From NCBI GenBank assembly GCA_945874895.1, contig CAMCIC010000004.1, positions 1-64,000 on the forward strand: a DNA stretch of 64,000 nucleotides. Direction: 5' to 3'. Position numbers and translations under genes: made by a program. Origin of the DNA: Akkermansia muciniphila. GTDB lineage: Bacteria; Verrucomicrobiota; Verrucomicrobiia; Verrucomicrobiales; Akkermansiaceae. Below, in pieces: positions 49,913 to 59,337 of this stretch. Under the pieces are notes generated by a model. The model saw only the letters and a list, made by a program, of their open reading frames with translations. It did not search any database and was not told the origin of the DNA. Position 1 is the first letter of the stretch. Each line of letters starts with the position of its first letter.

Positions 49913-50437
49913 TCATCGTGGTGGTGGGTATTTTTGAAGCTTCCTCTGAAGTGACCGACGATGCAAACCCAGCACCCGCGCTGCTTCGCTGATGTTGCCA
50001 TCACAATCGGATATCACACGCTGAATGTGTTCCCACTCGACTCGCTCCAAGCTCGCAGCGCTCATCTCCGCTGCTTGGTGCGTGCTGATCCGCCCACATT
50101 CTAGGGCCGTCAGCAATGCGTCCGCGTCCGTAGGTTTAATCAGGTAATCGACAGCCCCGAGCCTTACGGCTTCCATCGCTGTGGCAATGCTGCCATAGCC
50201 GGTGTGAATGAGAATGCGCATTTGCGGCCGATGCTGCATGATCGTTCGCAAGACATCGATCCCGTTTCGTCCGGGCATTTTTAGATCGAGAATCGCCGCA
50301 TCGAAATCGTGTTGATGGCAGAGACGGGTGGCTTCATCACCATCCCGTGCGCTGATCACTTCGTGACCACGATTCGTGAGCGCCCGGGCTAACCTCAGGC
50401 GGTAGGTTTCATCATCGTCAGCCAGCAGTAGCATCAT
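49913..50437 (-). CDS. RegA/ActR-type response regulator
   Basis: A 174-residue regulator with an N-terminal receiver domain (phospho-Asp in AAILDLKMPGRNG, the Lys in DYLIKPTDADALL, LLLADDDETYRLRL acidic pair) and a C-terminal Fis-type helix-turn-helix (GNISEAARVLGLHRRSLQRK), the layout of RegA/PrrA/ActR. The block HRRSLQRKLQK matches RegA's recognition helix. In Proteobacteria it responds to the redox state through RegB and controls respiration, photosynthesis or nitrogen genes; its targets here are unknown. The ATG pair overlaps the HK stop by 4 bp, so sensor and regulator are translationally coupled. Confidence 0.82.
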   Translation of the reverse strand: MMLLLADDDETYRLRLARALTNRGHEVISARDGDEATRLCHQHDFDAAILDLKMPGRNGIDVLRTIMQHRPQMRILIHTGYGSIATAMEAVRLGAVDYLIKPTDADALLTALECGRISTHQAAEMSAASLERVEWEHIQRVISDCDGNISEAARVLGLHRRSLQRKLQKYPPPR

Positions 50438-51702
50438 AGGGGTTCATCGTTTGATGGCCCAAGCAAGAGCAGTCGGGCATGCGTGCGTCCATCGCGAGAG
50501 CGATGCATGCCAAATTCCCCACGCAAGCGCTGGGCCAGACAGTTTACCAGAAAAAGTCCCAATCCCATGCCCTCGCCCGGTGCTTTGGTCGTGAAAAAGG
50601 GATCGCCAGCGCGCGAGAGAATTTCTTCTCCAGGGTCAGGGCCCGAGTCGATCACCTCGATCAAACAACCCTCGTTCTGTTGGCGAATCCGAACTTCGAT
50701 GATCCCTCCTCTGCCATCAGCCTGGGCGGCATTTTGAACGAGAATGAGAAGCGCCTGAACCGTGGCGTCATGCGGCAATTGCCATGTGACTTCATCATGA
50801 GTTCCATAGCGCAAACGCGATGCGATGTCACTGGATAGCTTTTTCTCGACGGAACTCGCGAGCATTGTTGCCGATAAGACAACGCAGGGATCGCCGATTC
50901 CGAAGGTGTTGCGCTCGTTCAGTTGGTCGAGAATGACTCGGCATCGGCGGGCTTGCTGGTGAATCAATTCAACGTCAGCACAGAGATCGGCATCCATCGT
51001 TTGCGGCATCTGTTTCAGCAACTCGGAGCTTGCCAGTGAAATGGTTGCCAAGGGCGACCCCAGTTCATGCGCCACGCCCGCTGACAAGGTGGCCAGTGCA
51101 GCGAAGCGCGCGTTTTTCTCCGCCCGGATTCGTGCTGCCTCCAGAGCTGCATCTTGCTCTAACAGAATGCGATGCATGCGCGAGACAAATGCAGCAATGA
51201 AACTAGCGGTGACAATGAATGCGATTAGCATGCCTTGCAGATGCCAACTGTAGCTTTCACAACCGCTGGAGATTTCGATTGAGCCCAGCATCACAGGACG
51301 GTGATGCAAAAAAATCAATCCATACGATGCGATGCAGCCGATCACGAGACACCACAGGCTCCGAGAAGAAAGCGTCATGGCGGCAAGCGCGATGTGCAAG
51401 AGATAAAAGGAGGTAAAGGGGTTGTGCGGTCCACCGGTATAGTAGATCAATACTGTGAGCAAAATGACATCCAACCTCAAGCTCCACCCGCGAAGCACGG
51501 ACTGCGGTTGGCGCAGGAAAACCAGATTGGAAAGCACCGTGATCAAAAAAACCGCGCTGACGGGTATCCAGGGGATGGAGATATCAAATATCGTCCATGC
51601 CAGTATGGCGGCAAAAGCCTGCCCCAATACCGCCAGCCAACGCATGCGGATGATCCAGCGGATGCTGACCGATTGACGCTGCGGCAGGGTTCGATGAGAC
51701 AT
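50434..51702 (-). CDS. RegB/PrrB-type redox sensor histidine kinase
   Basis: The N-terminal half has about six membrane helices and carries YYTGGPHNPFTSFYLLHIAL, containing the ubiquinone-binding GGxxNPF motif of RegB. The H-box reads AGVAHELGSPLATISLA, and HQQARRCRVILDQLNE keeps the redox-active cysteine position of RegB (Cys265 region). The ATPase ends with QNAAQADGRGGIIEV (N-box) and GEGMGLGLFLVNCLAQ (G-box). Function: autophosphorylates under reducing conditions and phosphorylates the adjacent RegA-like protein. ATG 51702 was chosen; in-frame ATGs at 51711 and 51714 are possible. Divergent from the TonB receptor gene with a ~100-bp shared region. Confidence 0.87.
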   Translation of the reverse strand: MSHRTLPQRQSVSIRWIIRMRWLAVLGQAFAAILAWTIFDISIPWIPVSAVFLITVLSNLVFLRQPQSVLRGWSLRLDVILLTVLIYYTGGPHNPFTSFYLLHIALAAMTLSSRSLWCLVIGCIASYGLIFLHHRPVMLGSIEISSGCESYSWHLQGMLIAFIVTASFIAAFVSRMHRILLEQDAALEAARIRAEKNARFAALATLSAGVAHELGSPLATISLASSELLKQMPQTMDADLCADVELIHQQARRCRVILDQLNERNTFGIGDPCVVLSATMLASSVEKKLSSDIASRLRYGTHDEVTWQLPHDATVQALLILVQNAAQADGRGGIIEVRIRQQNEGCLIEVIDSGPDPGEEILSRAGDPFFTTKAPGEGMGLGLFLVNCLAQRLRGEFGMHRSRDGRTHARLLLLGPSNDEPL

Positions 51703-51811
51703 CAGCGCCATCATGCGCTTGCCAAGGGCAACCGACAAGTGTTTCTCTCGCCATCAGATGCGGCATTTTGCCACATTCTCATGTTCGAAAAATCGGTTAT
51801 CATGCTGGCCT

Positions 51812-53875
51812 ATGCGGAAACATCACATCATCCTCTTCGCGGGAGTCACGCTGGCCCTCGCTGCGCAGGAAAGCACTCAGGATCTCGGTCCCGTGCTGGT
51901 GGAGGCGAAAAATACCAGCAAAACCCCCACAGTTCCTAGTCTGGAGCAAAGTCGTAAGGAATTGAAAAAAACACCCGGCGGCACGGAAGTGGTGGATGCA
52001 GATCGATATCTGCTGGGGCGCTCATCCACTCTGGCCGATACTTTCGCACTTTCGCCAGGAGTCGTCGCACAGCCTCGGTTCGGATCCGATGAGGCACGGC
52101 TCTCCATTCGCGGATCGGGCTTACAACGCACCTTTCATGGTCGCGGCATTCGCATCATGCAAGATGGCATACCGATCAATCTTGCCGATGGCGGATTCGA
52201 TATGCAGGCATTGGAACCCAACGCAGTGGATTACATCAACGTGTGGCGGGGAGCAAACGCTCTCGCCTATGGAGCGTCAACACTGGGCGGAGCCATCGAT
52301 TTTATTTCAAATACAGGTCACACATCGCCGAAAACTCGTTGGCGCTCAGAGGTGGGTTCATGGAATTATGCGCGCTCCACTTTATCCCATGGCTGGAGTG
52401 ATGCCTCACGCGATCTCTACGTTTCCGCCACCGCCCAGCAGCAGGATGGATTCCGTGATCATGCTCGTCAGGAAAATCTGAGAATTTTCAGCAATTTCGG
52501 ATGGGCTTGGGAAGAAAACCAAGAAACTCGATTTTATCTCACTGCGGTCCAGTCGCGCTCGGAACTACCAGGTTCATTGACTCGCTCACAAATGATCGAT
52601 TCACCGCGCAGGGCAAACGCCGCGAATCTTCTGCGCGATCAACGCCGCGATTTCGACCTGCTCCGCTTGGCCAACAAAACCGCCATTCGCAACGGCAATT
52701 TGACGTGGGAAATGTTCGCAGCGATGAGCTTCAAAGATTTGAATCATCCAATTTTTCAGGTCTTGGATCAGCGGTCACAGGACTTTACGGCAGGAGCAAG
52801 CATGGTTCATCAGGATGAATGGATGAATCGTGAAAATCAAATCAAAGCAGGAATACTTCTCACTCATGGTGTAACCCATGCGGCGCAGTTCGGTTATGTC
52901 TCGCCGACCTCTTCTCAGCGTGGACTCATGCTTCAAGATGACGATCAGATGGCGAGCAATGCGGAAGCATTCATCGAGGACCAGTTGACATTGGATCACG
53001 GATTTACAGCGGTGTTGGGCATGATCGCCTCACACAATCAACGCAAAAACACCCGTGAGTTCGGTTCGGTGAATCCGACGACAAATTACGATCTTCGCTA
53101 CGATCAACTTGCGCCGAAGATCGGCTTGCGCTGGGATGGTAAGGGCTTGCAGTTCTTTGCGAATGTATCGGGCAGTTACGAACCACCGTCTTTCAGCGAA
53201 ACGATTACCGCGAATACCGCACGCAACGCCCAAACAGCGACCACGGGAGAGGTCGGTGTGCGGGGGGAACATGCATTTTACCGATGGGATCTCGCCATGT
53301 ATCATTCGCAACTCGAAGACGAATTGCTGGCCATCCTCGATCCCACGACAAACCTCAGCACCACCACCAACGCAAAGAAGACCACACATGCAGGGATCGA
53401 AATGGGAACAGAAATCGATTTGCTCGGACAATTCTGGGACGAAACTGCCAGAAATCGTCTCGTATTCGCATCAGCATGGACTTATGGACGTTTTCGATTC
53501 GAGGACCACCGCGCGTCTGGATATGATTACTCAGGAAACAGAATTGCAGGTCTGCCGCCCCATTTGATCCGTGCGGAATTGATGTGGCGTCATTCCGATG
53601 GCTATTACGCAGGTCCAACCTGCGAATGGGTTCCACAGGGGGGATACATCGATCACCGCAATACTTTAAAAAGCGATCCTTACTTTTTGATCGGTTTTCG
53701 CATCGGCAGACGAACAGAGCAGGGGATATCGTGGTTCTTGGAGGCACGCAACTTGACCGATGAGGTTCATGCTGCAACCACCGGAGTCATCGATCATGCC
53801 AATGGTGCCGATGTTGCTCAGTTCCTCCCAGGTGATGGAATGGGGCTATTTTCGGGATGGGAGATCCACTGGTGA
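51812..53875 (+). CDS. TonB-dependent outer-membrane receptor
   Basis: A 687-residue ligand-gated receptor. ATG 51812 gives a signal peptide (KHHIILFAGVTLALAAQ); a possible TonB box lies just after it (LGPVLVEAKN). The plug domain shows STLADTFALSPGVVAQPR, EARLSIRGSGLQ, GGFDMQALEPNAVDYINVWR and ALAYGASTLGGAIDF. The remainder is a 22-strand barrel type (FRDHARQENLRIF, KIGLRWDGKGLQFFANVSG, EAGRNLTDEV-like ending), closing with a C-terminal tryptophan (GWEIHW). The substrate class (siderophore, cobalamin, glycan) cannot be read; no TonB, hemin or siderophore genes are adjacent. The divergent RegB-type kinase may control it. Confidence 0.92.
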   Translation: MRKHHIILFAGVTLALAAQESTQDLGPVLVEAKNTSKTPTVPSLEQSRKELKKTPGGTEVVDADRYLLGRSSTLADTFALSPGVVAQPRFGSDEARLSIRGSGLQRTFHGRGIRIMQDGIPINLADGGFDMQALEPNAVDYINVWRGANALAYGASTLGGAIDFISNTGHTSPKTRWRSEVGSWNYARSTLSHGWSDASRDLYVSATAQQQDGFRDHARQENLRIFSNFGWAWEENQETRFYLTAVQSRSELPGSLTRSQMIDSPRRANAANLLRDQRRDFDLLRLANKTAIRNGNLTWEMFAAMSFKDLNHPIFQVLDQRSQDFTAGASMVHQDEWMNRENQIKAGILLTHGVTHAAQFGYVSPTSSQRGLMLQDDDQMASNAEAFIEDQLTLDHGFTAVLGMIASHNQRKNTREFGSVNPTTNYDLRYDQLAPKIGLRWDGKGLQFFANVSGSYEPPSFSETITANTARNAQTATTGEVGVRGEHAFYRWDLAMYHSQLEDELLAILDPTTNLSTTTNAKKTTHAGIEMGTEIDLLGQFWDETARNRLVFASAWTYGRFRFEDHRASGYDYSGNRIAGLPPHLIRAELMWRHSDGYYAGPTCEWVPQGGYIDHRNTLKSDPYFLIGFRIGRRTEQGISWFLEARNLTDEVHAATTGVIDHANGADVAQFLPGDGMGLFSGWEIHW

Positions 53876-54192: not shown

Positions 54193-55293
54193 TCAGTCGA
54201 GTTTGCGCTTGGGAGCTGGTTTGGATGGGACGGCCCCTGGCTTAGGTGGAGCTGGTTGCTCGAGACGATTGACCTCGAAATCGAGTGTCGCTTGGTAGTA
54301 GGTATTGCCGTCAATCTCCCAGCCACAGGCCAAATTCATGCTATCGGCAATCTCCCTTGCCTTGATGTAGGTAGCAAAACCGTTTGGATTGACCTTGAAA
54401 ATCAGCACGTTGCGCGGCGAGGATCGAACTCGATCACAGATTTTATGAAAACGACCACGCGGCTGCTCGATGTCGGCAAGACTGGCGTCGCCTTTTTTGG
54501 GGTCAAAACTGATGCGATAGGACAAGCGAGTCCACGGCTTGTTGTAAGGCACGCTGATCGATTGATTGCGTATTTTCAGATTTCGCTGTGAGAAAAATTG
54601 CACGGTTTTTTCCTGATCAAAAACTTTCACATCGGCTTTTTTGGGAATCTTGCGAAGCTCGCGCAAAAGGTTCCTTTCGTTGCTCTTGAATTCCGCCATG
54701 ACCAGGTTCTTCGCTTCGTAGGGATCAACAAAATGCGCCTGATCACCCACGATGTAACAATAAAAGACATCGGCGGTTTCCGGGATGTCTCGGCTATTCG
54801 GGATTTTGACAACAGTCGCCTCGGGCATCTTCGGGATGGGCGTCTGGTCAAGCAGCCCTTTCATTCGACTGATCTCGGCAAGAAGCACTTCGGTTTTCTT
54901 GCGCTCCTCCGTTTCCGTTTTCTTTTGTGCATCAACCTGTTGCTTGAGCTTCGAAATTTCCATCAATCCTGCATTGTGCTTTTTGATAGAGTCTTCCAAG
55001 AGAGATAGATCCGCTTCGATCCTACCCAATTCCTGCGGTTTTGGCTCAGGTGCCTTGAGCAATTCTTTTTGTTTTTGAATCTGCTGAAGGATTTGGTTCT
55101 TTTGCTGCTGAGATGCCGTAATCTGTTCGGGAGTCGCAGGCTTGAGGTCATCCAGTAATTTTTGCACGGCATTGGTAACATCAACCTGCAGCAAAATCAA
55201 AATCACGATGAGTACGGCCACGACATTGGTCAGAGCATCCATCAAGGAGTCCATGCTCACCGCTTCTGAGTCACTTGATTTTTTTCGTGCCAT
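54193..55293 (-). CDS. ExbD/TolR-like membrane protein with coiled coil (Asp-containing)
   Basis: The 366-residue protein has a single N-terminal membrane helix, SLMDALTNVVAVLIVILILL, with an aspartate placed as in ExbD/TolR/MotB proton-path helices. A ~110-residue coiled coil rich in Gln/Lys/Glu follows (residues ~45-160), then a C-terminal domain whose end (NVLIFKVNPNGFATYIKARE) resembles the ExbD periplasmic fold and is paralogous to the end of the next gene's product. It ends in a basic Pro/Lys tail. It belongs to a four-gene leftward operon (59337 to 54193). Inferred: the ion-conducting partner of the TolQ-like protein at 56132; force is perhaps passed to an envelope target. Confidence 0.7.
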   Translation of the reverse strand: MARKKSSDSEAVSMDSLMDALTNVVAVLIVILILLQVDVTNAVQKLLDDLKPATPEQITASQQQKNQILQQIQKQKELLKAPEPKPQELGRIEADLSLLEDSIKKHNAGLMEISKLKQQVDAQKKTETEERKKTEVLLAEISRMKGLLDQTPIPKMPEATVVKIPNSRDIPETADVFYCYIVGDQAHFVDPYEAKNLVMAEFKSNERNLLRELRKIPKKADVKVFDQEKTVQFFSQRNLKIRNQSISVPYNKPWTRLSYRISFDPKKGDASLADIEQPRGRFHKICDRVRSSPRNVLIFKVNPNGFATYIKAREIADSMNLACGWEIDGNTYYQATLDFEVNRLEQPAPPKPGAVPSKPAPKRKLD

Positions 55294-55297
55294 GATT

Positions 55298-56110
55298 CTA
55301 TCGTTTCAGAAAAAGGGTCAGATCGATTTCTCCCTGAGTGGGAACGGGTAGTTTGCCGATGCGTAGGTTATACTTGGTTTCTGCATAAGCCCCAGCAGTG
55401 CGAAAGGAGCCATGTCCATCGGCACGGATCAGAAACAATACCAGATGCTCGCGATGGGATTTAAGCCGATTCAAAGCTCCCGCTAACTTGCTATCGGTCT
55501 CGACGGTAGCTGCTGAAACCGGTGTTTTGCTGCCATTTTGATCAAGAATGACCACTCCGTTGGAGTTGCACTCGATGAAGAGCAGTTCGGTATTGGCAGA
55601 AATACCGGAACCAGCAGGATTGACTCGCACGGGCAATGGCTTGCCATCGGGCTTGATCTTGCGGCGTTCCAGCTCTGCTTTGAGTTCCGCCAGTTGTTTT
55701 TCCAAAGTGGGTCGTTCTTTTTTCAGGGCTGCGATCTGATCGATCAGTTGCTCCAGCATTTTTTGAAGAGCTTCATCCGATTGTGTGGGCGCGGCCTTGC
55801 TGTCGGCCAGTTTCTTTTTCAGCACGATGCGTTTGTTTTCGAGCTCGCTCAACTCCACCAGTGCTGCGTTGCGTTCCTTCAATACGGCTTTGATTTTTTC
55901 GAGCTCTTTATCCTGTTTTTTGATATCCGCCTGCAGTTGTTGGTTTTGTTTCGCACGCGCCAGTTCCTGCTCATCGCGCCCATTGTTTTCCTGCGCTTTG
56001 ATGTCGCTGATGATTTTGATCATCATGGTGAGGATGCCAATCAAACAGGCGAGAATGCTCAAAAAGGGAAAGAGCGAAACTCCGGTAGAACTGGATGGAC
56101 GACGAGACAT
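55298..56110 (-). CDS. ExbD-like membrane protein with coiled coil (no membrane Asp)
   Basis: A 270-residue protein with one N-terminal membrane helix (SLFPFLSILACLIGILTMMI), followed by a long charged coiled coil (residues ~35-160) and a C-terminal domain with strands LLFIECNSNGVVIL and HLVLFLIRADGHGSFRTAG, similar in pattern to its neighbour's C-terminus. Unlike ExbD, TolR and MotB, its membrane helix has no aspartate, so it probably cannot carry protons and would be the structural half of a heteromer with the 54193 product. The genes are 4 bp apart. No peptidoglycan-binding OmpA motif is visible. Confidence 0.7.
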   Translation of the reverse strand: MSRRPSSSTGVSLFPFLSILACLIGILTMMIKIISDIKAQENNGRDEQELARAKQNQQLQADIKKQDKELEKIKAVLKERNAALVELSELENKRIVLKKKLADSKAAPTQSDEALQKMLEQLIDQIAALKKERPTLEKQLAELKAELERRKIKPDGKPLPVRVNPAGSGISANTELLFIECNSNGVVILDQNGSKTPVSAATVETDSKLAGALNRLKSHREHLVLFLIRADGHGSFRTAGAYAETKYNLRIGKLPVPTQGEIDLTLFLKR

Positions 56111-56131
56111 GAGGAGCGACGAGGATCGTAA

Positions 56132-57451
56132 TCAGCGCGAGAAGAATCCTTTTTTCTTGATGGTAATGGTTTCGCCGCCCAACTGCTTGAGTGTGGCATT
56201 GAGTGATTCCACACCTTTCGACAACGAAGCGAAATATTCATTGAGTTGAGTCGTGGGCTGCACAAAAGCGTCGCGTGTATCGCTGGTCAATTTGTCCACA
56301 GCTTGCTGGAAGGTGCCTTCCACTTTCGTCTGGTGCGCATCGAGACGGGTCTTGAGTGTTTCACCTGCATCGCGCAACACGGTGGTGGCCTCTTGTAACT
56401 TCACCAAGAAGACTTCGTGAGCGTGTGATAGCGATGCGGCAAAGGCAGGAATGCTTTCCGCTTGCGAGAGCAAAAGTTCATCGGTCGATTTGCTGGAATC
56501 GTTGAGCTTCGGTAGAAGCTTTTCGGAACAGAAGGCATCGATCTCTGTAAGCAATTCTTCTTCTTCCTTCTGCATCGTGGCCATCGGGAAGGACATGATC
56601 ATGGACAAGATGAGACCTAACAGAGTGGTATCAAACGCCACACCCAATCCACTGGTGAGGCTGTTGATCGATTCCTTAAGGGCCTCGGGATCGGTGGAGC
56701 CAGCGGAGAGGGAACTGACCGCTTGAGATAACCCCTGAACCGTGCCGATGAAACCGAGGATGGGAATCGCCCAGAGGAAAACTTTGAGCAGGGCGTAGGA
56801 TCCCGTAATGCGATTGGCATCGATATCCGATTGGGCAGACAGGAGAGTGGCAACTTCGCTGTTGTTGTTGCGTTTTTCGAAGAGTTCCATGCCCTTGCGG
56901 ATGCGATTGACCATCAGACTGTCACGCAAACGGTTGGGAAGTTTGTAAATGTGATCGATGAATCCGCCTACCGTATGGGAATTGATCTCGCTGCCCAACT
57001 TGACAGGCACGACATCCAACAACATGGCGCGACGCTGGCGCTTGGTTTTTTTCCATTTCATCACCAGGATCACCATGCCCCAGAGGAAAAAGAATACTTC
57101 GGCGTAGTTCACCCATCCGCGTTTGAGAAAAAGATCCCCGAGTTTCGGTTCCTGTGGATTGGGTCCCAGTAACGGAATCATGGCCACGAGGAAAATGACG
57201 CTGATCATCACACCATAGGCAAGGCTGACGAAGAAATTGACATTCGCGTGATCATCTTCATTCCATCCGCCGCGCTGACCTTGCGCGTGCTGGGTGAGGC
57301 TGGCCGAAGTAACCCGTGTTGGTTTAACGGCAATGGCGGCCAATGAGGGGATTTGAAATTTGCTATTGCATCCGGGGCAGGATACGATTTTTCCAGCATG
57401 TTCGTCTTCAGCAGTCATGCTGATTTGGCAGTGGGGACATTGGAATTCCAT
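56132..57451 (-). CDS. MotA/TolQ/ExbB-type channel protein with N-terminal zinc ribbon
   Basis: A 439-residue inner-membrane protein. It opens with a zinc ribbon (FQCPHCQISMTAEDEHAGKI, CPGCNSKF), rare in this family. Two hydrophobic hairpins follow (VSLAYGVMISVIFLVAMIPL and the EVFFFLWGMVILVMKW region), then the TolQ core: LLKVFLWAIPILGFIGTVQG and GLGVAFDTTLLGLILSMIMS, which carries the conserved Thr of TM3. The C-terminal ~130 residues form a cytoplasmic coiled coil (LVKLQEATTVLRDAGETLKT). It is the natural stator partner for the two ExbD-like proteins encoded 21 and 839 bp downstream. TolQ, ExbB and MotA lack such a ribbon and tail. Confidence 0.8.
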   Translation of the reverse strand: MEFQCPHCQISMTAEDEHAGKIVSCPGCNSKFQIPSLAAIAVKPTRVTSASLTQHAQGQRGGWNEDDHANVNFFVSLAYGVMISVIFLVAMIPLLGPNPQEPKLGDLFLKRGWVNYAEVFFFLWGMVILVMKWKKTKRQRRAMLLDVVPVKLGSEINSHTVGGFIDHIYKLPNRLRDSLMVNRIRKGMELFEKRNNNSEVATLLSAQSDIDANRITGSYALLKVFLWAIPILGFIGTVQGLSQAVSSLSAGSTDPEALKESINSLTSGLGVAFDTTLLGLILSMIMSFPMATMQKEEEELLTEIDAFCSEKLLPKLNDSSKSTDELLLSQAESIPAFAASLSHAHEVFLVKLQEATTVLRDAGETLKTRLDAHQTKVEGTFQQAVDKLTSDTRDAFVQPTTQLNEYFASLSKGVESLNATLKQLGGETITIKKKGFFSR

Positions 57452-57543
57452 GGTTTTTTGTGTCAGAGTGATGGTTGAGAGCTAGGTTAGAGGAACAGAT
57501 GTGTGAGACAAGACAAGAAGTGTGTCATCATGATGCTAGTCGA

Positions 57544-59337
57544 TCAGTGCGGAGTGCTCATGCGATCTCGTTCTCGGGTGAAAAACCATGAAATGAGCAA
57601 CAATGCCACCAAAAGCAACACCCACAGGTGCCAGTAGGGGTCACCTGTGCTATGTGCCTCGATGGAGATTTTTTTCGCATCAGCGAGTTGATTCAACTCG
57701 CCACACAAGCGGAAATCCGCTTCGCGAGTATCGGCAAAATGCGTTGCCGTTTCCATGAGGATCTGATCCTGTTGCCGGTATCGGAAATAGCCTGGCGTAT
57801 CAGGACTGGTCAACGGCATCCGTGCATCCACAACCGTGGTCCGTATGGTCTCGCCTGATTTGTTGAGTTCCAGCAATTGAACCGGCGATGCCGTGATGGG
57901 AGTTGAAGTCGCCAAACGAATGGGTTGAGAAATTTCCAGATTTTCTTGCGATGCTGCCACCTTGCGCTCACGGATTTGCTCGATGAAACGCAGCAACATG
58001 ACGATCATGGCCGGTTGGTTATCGATATTAGACAATCGCGGATCAAAATTGAACATGAGTTGTTGAGACGCGGGGCGTTCCGCTTCAGCAGGCACCTCCC
58101 GCAAGAGGATCAGTGGCCGCTGATCCTGACGGAGTAAGACTTGATCATTGCGTCGTATTTCTAGAGGGATGGTTTCACGTACTAGTAGGGATTGCCAGTT
58201 GAGACCGTCCATGAGAGGATGCTTCTCCGCAATGATGCCGCCCGCAAGGTATTGTCCACCTTGCGTCCCATCATTCACAAACATCACGGCATGACCCACC
58301 GAAGGGGTGGGATCAAGGGGATCATAGGACACCAGAGCGATGTCCGCATCCATTGCACTTCCTGTCACCAACTGATCGATGGAGCGAAGCAATTTTTTCG
58401 AAAGTTCATCCAGCGACGCGCTGCTACATAGTTTGAGTTGTTTGGGTTGTGGGCGAACGAGACGCATGGTGTCATCGATCGGAAACTCGTCTGACGACAA
58501 CCTGATCTCGACGCGATTTGCGTTCCTTGGGAAACTCGATTGCAGAGTGACCACGCTCCGCGCCGGCAATGCAATGTCTTTCGGAGAGGAAGTCGAACCA
58601 TTGTCCCCATCTGCCTGCCAACGACGAGTCGTGTTATTTTCGGAATAATTTTGTAGTGTTGCACGCCACACTACATCGCCATTTTTGGTTTCGAACGAGA
58701 GCCCCGTAAATCCCACGTTATCGATGACTTCCCCCACGCTCAACGAAATGGCCTCAAAGGGCAACTTCTCCGTGGGAGTATCAGTCGCATAGATCAGGAT
58801 CCCATCACGGGAGACAAGCGAGCGGCCGAGACGTAGGGCAAGGGTTGGGTCCGTTGTGCCAGATGCGGGTTGCCAAGCCTGCATGGCGCGCAACAATTCA
58901 TCCAAGGACTTTCCAGCATACATTCTCGGCTTTCCCGGCGTTGATTCCAGAACTGTGTATTCGACCTCCGAGGCAAACCCTTGCAAATCGGGCAATTCAC
59001 GAGCCATGGCCGCGATCAGGCGATCCTTGCTCACCATCATCGATGCAGAGGAATCGAGCACAACTGCGATCCGCTGTGTGCTGCGGGCGACAGGGTAGCG
59101 TGGCTCGATCAACAACCAGCTGAGGAGTATCACGCTCAATAGCTGCATCCATAGGGGAACAGACTGTGTCAGACGATCTATATGGCGACCGCTGCTGGCC
59201 TCGCGATGCGTTTTTTCCAGCAAAAAAAGCGTCGAAACCGGAATCATTTGCGCCTTCCGCTGCAGAAAGTGGATCAGGATGACGGCAGGAATTCCCAACA
59301 GGGCCCACAATCCAGCTGGGTTCGCAAATGTCGGCAT
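57544..59337 (-). CDS. BatA-type membrane protein with VWA domain
   Basis: A 597-residue inner-membrane protein of the BatA (aerotolerance) type. Two N-terminal membrane helices (GLWALLGIPAVILIHFLQRK, WMQLLSVILLSWLLIEPRY) are followed by a VWA domain whose MIDAS begins VVLDSSASMM (DxSxS intact), a long extracytoplasmic region with CARF/beta-sandwich-like stretches, and a C-terminal helix (HLWVLLLVALLLISWFFTRE). The usual MoxR ATPase partner and BatB/D are not in this operon. It is upstream of the TolQ-like gene by 92 bp and likely in the same transcription unit. The role is inferred: a metal-dependent adhesion or assembly platform. Confidence 0.78.
   Translation of the reverse strand: MPTFANPAGLWALLGIPAVILIHFLQRKAQMIPVSTLFLLEKTHREASSGRHIDRLTQSVPLWMQLLSVILLSWLLIEPRYPVARSTQRIAVVLDSSASMMVSKDRLIAAMARELPDLQGFASEVEYTVLESTPGKPRMYAGKSLDELLRAMQAWQPASGTTDPTLALRLGRSLVSRDGILIYATDTPTEKLPFEAISLSVGEVIDNVGFTGLSFETKNGDVVWRATLQNYSENNTTRRWQADGDNGSTSSPKDIALPARSVVTLQSSFPRNANRVEIRLSSDEFPIDDTMRLVRPQPKQLKLCSSASLDELSKKLLRSIDQLVTGSAMDADIALVSYDPLDPTPSVGHAVMFVNDGTQGGQYLAGGIIAEKHPLMDGLNWQSLLVRETIPLEIRRNDQVLLRQDQRPLILLREVPAEAERPASQQLMFNFDPRLSNIDNQPAMIVMLLRFIEQIRERKVAASQENLEISQPIRLATSTPITASPVQLLELNKSGETIRTTVVDARMPLTSPDTPGYFRYRQQDQILMETATHFADTREADFRLCGELNQLADAKKISIEAHSTGDPYWHLWVLLLVALLLISWFFTRERDRMSTPH

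What the first reader, a model, noticed from the sequence alone, without database searches (positions are those of the whole stretch)
54193..59337. Four-gene ion-motor-like cluster with two unequal ExbD-like subunits
The TolQ-like protein has an N-terminal zinc ribbon and a C-terminal coiled coil. It is followed by two paralogous ExbD-like proteins with long coiled coils; only the 54193 product keeps the membrane aspartate, the 55298 product has none. A BatA-type VWA protein with an intact DxSxS motif precedes them. Known TolQR, ExbBD, MotAB and ZorAB pairs have one acidic partner and no zinc ribbon. The fold resemblance is family knowledge; the proposal of a heteromeric stator driving an envelope task is inference.
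Basis: partly seen in the sequence, partly recalled or inferred. Interest (0 to 1): 0.75.

Follow-up and report, generated by a model that had tools for sequence, protein, structure and literature searches.

The report
Three-gene ion motor, mismatched axle pair
A widespread but uncharacterised bacterial membrane motor in the Verrucomicrobiales has an axle built, most likely, from two different proteins, only one of which carries the usual ion-binding residue, and the residues lining the motor's ion path differ together across all three subunits; this makes it a natural test of how such motors step.

Summary
In detail: at 57451-54193 (- strand) lie a TolQ/ExbB-type protein with a cytoplasmic zinc ribbon, then two paralogous ExbD-like proteins with long helical spacers; the 54193 product has the membrane Asp (D19, plus D15), the 55298 product has Ser18 in its place. 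The conserved unit is three genes, not four: TolQ-b-a stays together in nearly all of 79 loci, while the BatA/VWA gene is next to it in 5 and occurs on its own in 35 of 38 relatives. In the order, 182 of 387 genomes have the b subunit. Both periplasmic domains match TolR best among solved structures. The strongest new finding is a concerted switch: 117 of 118 complete loci are either b-Ser / a-Asp15+Asp19 / TolQ-Thr275 or b-Asp / a-Val15+Asp19 / TolQ-Ala275. This argues for one shared pore with a heterodimeric axle, though it rests on only about two evolutionary events. [quoted passage not shown] The cellular task is unknown; I favour a peptidoglycan-gripping, ion-driven envelope motor.

The parts
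56132..57451 (-). TolQ/ExbB/MotA-type channel subunit, 439 aa: N-terminal zinc ribbon (C5, C8, C25, C28), membrane segments with FIGTV and AFDTTLLGL (T275, T276), E118 in the second membrane segment, helical C-terminal tail
   Evidence: PF01618 43.4 bits; zinc ribbon in 124 of 126 homologues; invariant residues in A3
57368..57439 (-). zinc-ribbon cysteines of the TolQ-like protein (residues 5, 8, 25, 28)
   Evidence: sequence; conserved in 124 of 126 homologues
55298..56110 (-). ExbD-like subunit b, 270 aa: one membrane helix (about 14-42) with Ser18 where ExbD has Asp, two long helices 47-104 and 112-150, TolR/ExbD-like domain 164-264
56057..56059 (-). codon of b Ser18, the Asp site of ExbD/TolR; Asp in the other class of relatives
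54193..55293 (-). ExbD-like subunit a, 366 aa: one membrane helix with D15 and invariant D19 followed by T22-N23, long helices 55-80 and 86-150, TolR-like domain 156-329 with an insertion
55237..55251 (-). codons of a Asp15 to Asp19 (DSLMD of the MDSLMD motif)
   Evidence: coordinates computed from the start at 55293
57544..59337 (-). BatA-type VWA protein, 597 aa; upstream neighbour, NOT part of the conserved module
   Evidence: PF07584 46.8 bits; adjacent in 5 of 79 loci, present elsewhere in 35 of 38 relatives

Best explanation
A three-protein, ion-driven motor of the MotA/TolQ/ExbB superfamily with a heterodimeric axle. Five TolQ-like subunits form the ring, and one copy each of b and a supply the two axle helices inside it (5:1:1). 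In this class the ion is carried by Asp19 of a, helped by Asp15 one helical turn nearer the cytoplasm; Ser18 of b takes the second axle position without carrying an ion. Ion flow turns ring against axle; the long helical spacers of a and b hold their TolR-like domains well out in the periplasm, where they would grip peptidoglycan or an envelope partner; the zinc ribbon and helical tail act on the cytoplasmic side. Shown: gene content and order, conservation, residues, predicted folds, the concerted residue switch. Inferred: stoichiometry, rotation, ion, peptidoglycan binding, cellular task.
For: TolQ-b-a conserved in order in the relatives found, zinc ribbon in 124 of 126. b and a paralogous, with S18 and D19 aligned with the canonical ExbD Asp. 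Both models' best solved match is TolR 5by4 (Z 7.5 for b, Z 7.9 for a), with several ExbD entries also high for b. 85 loci are b-S/a-D15/TolQ-T275 and 32 b-D/a-V15/TolQ-A275, one exception. Class-specific columns lie in or beside the membrane segments of all three proteins: TolQ 111, 113, 116, 118, 224, 275; b 12, 18, 21, 22; a 14, 15, 16, 20. L046 branches among the D class on TolQ and on b and a with their membrane parts removed, yet bears S-class letters at 11 of 13 such columns against 8 of 46 at other class-differing columns (Fisher p 1.5e-5).
Against: The switch rests on about two evolutionary events; the sign test on independent pairs cannot reach significance, and an AU test does not quite reject a single D clade (p 0.075). 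One locus (L261) has Asp in b and both Asp in a, and in other classes of the phylum b has Asp while a has Glu/Asp plus Asp (L271-L279), so acid number is not fixed. No complex could be modelled. PF02472 does not reach a or b. TolR match Z-scores are under 8.
Confidence: 0.55

Rival explanations
1. b and a form separate homodimers: a:a is the working axle, and b:b or lone b is an ion-dead plug, anchor or regulator of the same ring.
For: b lacks the ion-carrying acid in 88 of the 126 loci scored; for AglQ/AglS it is also unknown whether homo- or heterodimers form (PMC9389320).
Against: b's membrane residues change together with those of a and TolQ, as expected of helices in one pore; a and b are kept as a tight tandem; in the D class b keeps the Asp.
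Confidence: 0.2
2. A Ton/Tol-like energiser whose force transducer is the neighbouring VWA protein, as proposed for PVC tolQ-tolR-tolR-vWA loci.
For: VWA gene directly upstream in the window and in four same-genus genomes; published PVC loci with a vWA transducer (PMC12204202); such a locus seen here in L271 with VWA_2 30 bits.
Against: The VWA gene is not next to the motor in 74 of 79 loci and exists in genomes without the motor; it is BatA-type with its own N-terminal domain, and lies upstream, not downstream.
Confidence: 0.1
3. A Zorya-like anti-phage motor.
For: The TolQ-like protein's best PADLOC hits are ZorA models (7.9e-12), covering the pore and the helical tail.
Against: The hits reflect shared MotA/ExbB ancestry and coiled coil; no PADLOC ZorB hit better than 0.1 for a and none for b; neighbours in the window are TatD, HisA-like, VWA and a TonB receptor, not ZorC/D/E; it is present in about half of the order's genomes with no common neighbour.
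Confidence: 0.05
4. The residue 'switch' is only shared ancestry of two subfamilies and says nothing about physical contact.
For: Two main clades; AU p 0.075 for a single D clade; only about two independent events.
Against: L046 has S-class letters in the membrane sector of all three proteins but D-class letters elsewhere (11 of 13 against 8 of 46); D monophyly appears in 0 of 200 bootstrap trees without the diagnostic columns.
Confidence: 0.1

Closest known systems
[quoted passage not shown] PMC12204202, 2025)
   Same: One TolQ-like gene followed by two different TolR-like genes in Verrucomicrobiota/Planctomycetes; homologous TolQ and b subunits in such a locus here (L271: A3 and A1 profiles hit, VWA downstream)
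   Different: The window's TolQ has a zinc ribbon; no vWA transducer downstream; b lacks the membrane acid; the residue switch across subunits was not found in the passages read
AglRQS gliding motor of Myxococcus (PMC9389320)
   Same: One MotA-like and two MotB-like subunits
   Different: Both AglQ and AglS carry the Asp; no zinc ribbon known to me; function in gliding
TolQR / ExbBD
   Same: MotA_ExbB domain, single-helix partner with Asp, TolR-type periplasmic domain
   Different: Homodimeric axle, short linker, no zinc ribbon; ExbD profile PF02472 does not reach a or b; no TonB/TolA/Pal genes alongside
ZorAB of Zorya (PMC11890865)
   Same: MotA-like ring with long cytoplasmic helical tail; weak ZorA profile hits
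   Different: ZorB is one protein with a Pal/OmpA-like peptidoglycan domain; no ZorC, ZorD or ZorE near the window locus

Membership tests
MotA/TolQ/ExbB channel family (PF01618) | profile match over the curated cut-off | tested here: met
   43.4 bits against 22.9; found as one of seven PF01618 genes in the genome
ExbD/TolR family (PF02472) | profile match | tested here: not met
   no PF02472 match at E<=1 in a or b, none at E<=0.01 among those listed for 75 homologues
ExbD/TolR family (PF02472), subunit a | single N-terminal membrane helix with conserved Asp | tested here: met
   a: D19 invariant in all aligned sequences
ExbD/TolR family (PF02472), subunit b | conserved membrane Asp | tested here: not met
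   Ser18 in the window and in 88 of 126 loci; Asp in the rest where the site was read
ExbD/TolR fold, subunit b | TolR/ExbD-like periplasmic domain | tested here: met
   b: TolR 5by4 ranks first in Foldseek (prob 1.00) and VIA-align (Z 7.5), ExbD 8pek Z 6.4, 8p9r Z 6.2; moderate scores
ExbD/TolR fold, subunit a | TolR/ExbD-like periplasmic domain | tested here: inconclusive
   TolR 5by4 first in VIA-align at Z 7.9, next row 6.1; Foldseek E 0.48, rank 11
AglRQS-type motor | two MotB-like subunits, both with Asp | tested here: not met
   b lacks the Asp; feature from PMC9389320
PVC tolQ-tolR-tolR-vWA transducer loci | tolQ-like gene with two heterologous tolR-like genes | tested here: met
PVC tolQ-tolR-tolR-vWA transducer loci | adjacent conserved vWA transducer | tested here: not met
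   VWA in 5 of 79 loci, upstream and BatA-type
Zorya defence | ZorB plus ZorC/ZorD or ZorE | tested here: not met
   no ZorB match better than 0.1; window neighbours are TatD, HisA-like, VWA and TonB receptor
5:2 rotary motor | pentamer around a dimer, ion-driven rotation | not testable with these tools

The most novel reading that the evidence does not exclude
An obligately heterodimeric axle in which both acids sit on one strand and the other strand has Ser: a rotary motor with one ion-carrying strand, engaging every 72 degrees rather than alternating between two equivalent strands, and with a sister class in which one acid sits on each strand.
Probability: 0.35. Interest if true: 0.78.

Novelty: new variant of a known kind. 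Interest (0 to 1): 0.55.

Why it matters
In the current 36-degree stepping picture of 5:2 motors (established models, from my own knowledge) two identical axle helices take turns at the ion site. A natural family with non-identical helices, one without the acid, and a sister family with one acid on each, would let that picture be tested directly by comparing two evolved motors. It also shows a conserved, uncharacterised envelope motor in about half of sampled Verrucomicrobiales genomes whose axle proteins the standard ExbD profile misses.

Tried and rejected
Four-gene system with VWA: rejected by neighbourhood and distribution. Zorya: rejected on missing partners, only generic ZorA similarity. 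Sequence search of solved structures with the a profile gave only coiled-coil chance hits, and the TolQ profile gave PomA at 0.004. A strict rule 'two acids per axle' was considered and dropped: L261 has three, and the family L271-L279 has Asp in b plus Glu/Asp and Asp in a. A search for a conserved neighbour that could be a force transducer or load found none beyond lineage-specific neighbours. Fold searches listed ribosomal S11 and RNase H-like proteins just below TolR; taken as a common arrangement.

Full report
WHAT IS THERE. Four ORFs on the - strand, transcribed from 59337 down to 54193: a BatA-type VWA protein (59337-57544), a TolQ/ExbB-type protein (57451-56132), ExbD-like b (56110-55298) and ExbD-like a (55293-54193). 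Gaps are 92, 21 and 4 bases, so the last three look like one transcription unit. Upstream are TatD and a HisA-like gene; downstream and convergent is a TonB-dependent receptor. The genome has seven PF01618 genes; at least three others lie beside short canonical ExbDs with PMIDIL or PLIDIM.

THE PROTEINS. The TolQ-like protein matches PF01618 (43.4 bits) and has a CxxC-x16-CxxC zinc ribbon at its N-terminus, kept in 124 of 126 homologues; the two others have truncated or frame-shifted starts. Subunit b has one membrane helix with FPFLSILACLIG and subunit a one with MDSLMDALTNVV. b and a are paralogues (hhalign 98.9%); aligned profiles place b Ser18 and a Asp19 on the Asp of the genome's own canonical ExbDs. 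AlphaFold2 models (mean pLDDT 78 and 82) give a membrane helix, about 100 residues of long helices, then an alpha/beta domain. Against solved structures TolR (5by4) is the best match for both by VIA-align (Z 7.5 and 7.9), with ExbD entries also high for b. The scores are moderate, and Pfam's ExbD profile was not among the families listed for 75 a and b sequences. I call them ExbD-like on fold, paralogy and topology, not on profile membership.

THE UNIT IS THREE GENES. Of 38 relatives 22 have b, and in nearly all of these TolQ and a lie beside it in the same order. In the order 182 of 387 sampled genomes have b; one genus of the same family (g3) has it in almost none of the listed genomes. Over 79 loci with a called TolQ, b follows it in 68, and the remainder are mostly contig ends or ORF-calling overlaps (compare, where profiles find b and a in nearly all). 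The VWA gene precedes TolQ in only 5 loci, all in the window's genus, yet its orthologue is in 35 of 38 relatives, including genomes with no motor, mostly on other contigs. It is a neighbour, not a component.

A CONCERTED SWITCH IN THE MEMBRANE SECTOR. In 85 loci b has Ser at the Asp site, a has D15 and D19, and TolQ has T275 (AFDTT). In 32 loci b has Asp, a has Val15 and D19, and TolQ has A275 (AFDAT). One complete locus departs (L261: b Asp, a D15+D19, TolQ Thr), giving 117 of 118. A scan for class-specific columns found only 14 in the three proteins, all in or beside membrane segments: TolQ 111, 113, 116, 118, 224, 275; b 12, 18, 21, 22; a 14, 15, 16, 20. Among them TolQ E118 becomes N and R111 becomes H in the D class. 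L046 is telling: on the TolQ tree, and on b and a trees built without their membrane parts, it lies with D-class sequences, but it bears S-class letters at 11 of 13 diagnostic columns against 8 of 46 at other class-differing columns (Fisher p 1.5e-5). With the diagnostic columns removed, no bootstrap tree of 200 made the D class one clade. Limits: this amounts to about two switches; the sign test cannot reach significance, and the AU test gives p 0.075 for a single D clade. The Fisher test treats columns as independent, and one of the 13 (b 18) defined L046's class.

WIDER FAMILY. More distant loci in other classes of the phylum have TolQ without the ribbon, b with SFQDI and a with LELLLDTMCN, one of them with a downstream VWA protein. 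A third, short type has b without acid (SSFMAIL) and a with NLDSFLD. So two different axle proteins behind one TolQ is a general theme here, and the number of acids is not a constant.

MECHANISM. Established for the superfamily (own knowledge, and PMC9389320): a pentamer surrounds two helices, whose Asp residues alternately meet a ring of Thr. If b and a share one ring, S-class motors have one ion-carrying strand with two acids a helical turn apart, and D-class motors one acid on each strand. The shared switch is what one expects if the three proteins line one pore. The spacers (roughly 100 helical residues, up to about 15 nm if continuous) would put the TolR-like domains far into the periplasm. 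Peptidoglycan binding, rotation, ion identity and cellular role are inferred.

COMPARISON. [quoted passage not shown] AglRQS has two MotB-like proteins, both with Asp, and it is not known whether they form heterodimers (PMC9389320). Zorya's ZorAB has the long cytoplasmic tail but a single ZorB type (PMC11890865). The zinc-ribbon TolQ, the acid-free b and the switch were not found in the papers searched, within a library that lacks most subscription journals. Verdict: a new variant of a known kind.

Noticed in passing
L281 and L280 (genome G007): The motor operon of a same-genus genome appears split between b and a: the same ORF start (MTESPKKLIKVTIEPR, resembling an ISL3-type transposase zinc-finger region) flanks b on one contig and a on another, suggesting an inserted element and an assembly break. 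This genome carries the D-class motor while its genus otherwise has the S class.
   Followed up: partly
L261 (G612): The only complete locus breaking the class rule: b has PFLDII while a keeps both D15 and D19 and TolQ keeps Thr.
   Followed up: partly
L146, L148, L149, L156: Short TolQ plus two short ExbD-like genes in other classes of the phylum; the first ExbD lacks the membrane acid (SSFMAIL), the second has NLDSFLD.
   Followed up: partly
window 57544-59337: The BatA-type VWA protein is conserved in 35 of 38 relatives independently of the motor; its own usual context and function were not examined.
   Followed up: partly
L051, L053, L061: Records titled Akkermansia muciniphila sit among the window's genus by the motor proteins and look like mislabelled environmental MAGs.
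   Followed up: no
window 49913-51738 (-) and 51713-53875 (+): A histidine kinase and a response regulator with overlapping stop and start lie next to a divergent TonB-dependent receptor gene that ends convergently with the motor operon.
   Followed up: no
L270 649-2289: In a distant related motor locus the gene before TolQ encodes a trypsin-like peptidase with a GYF_2 domain.
   Followed up: no
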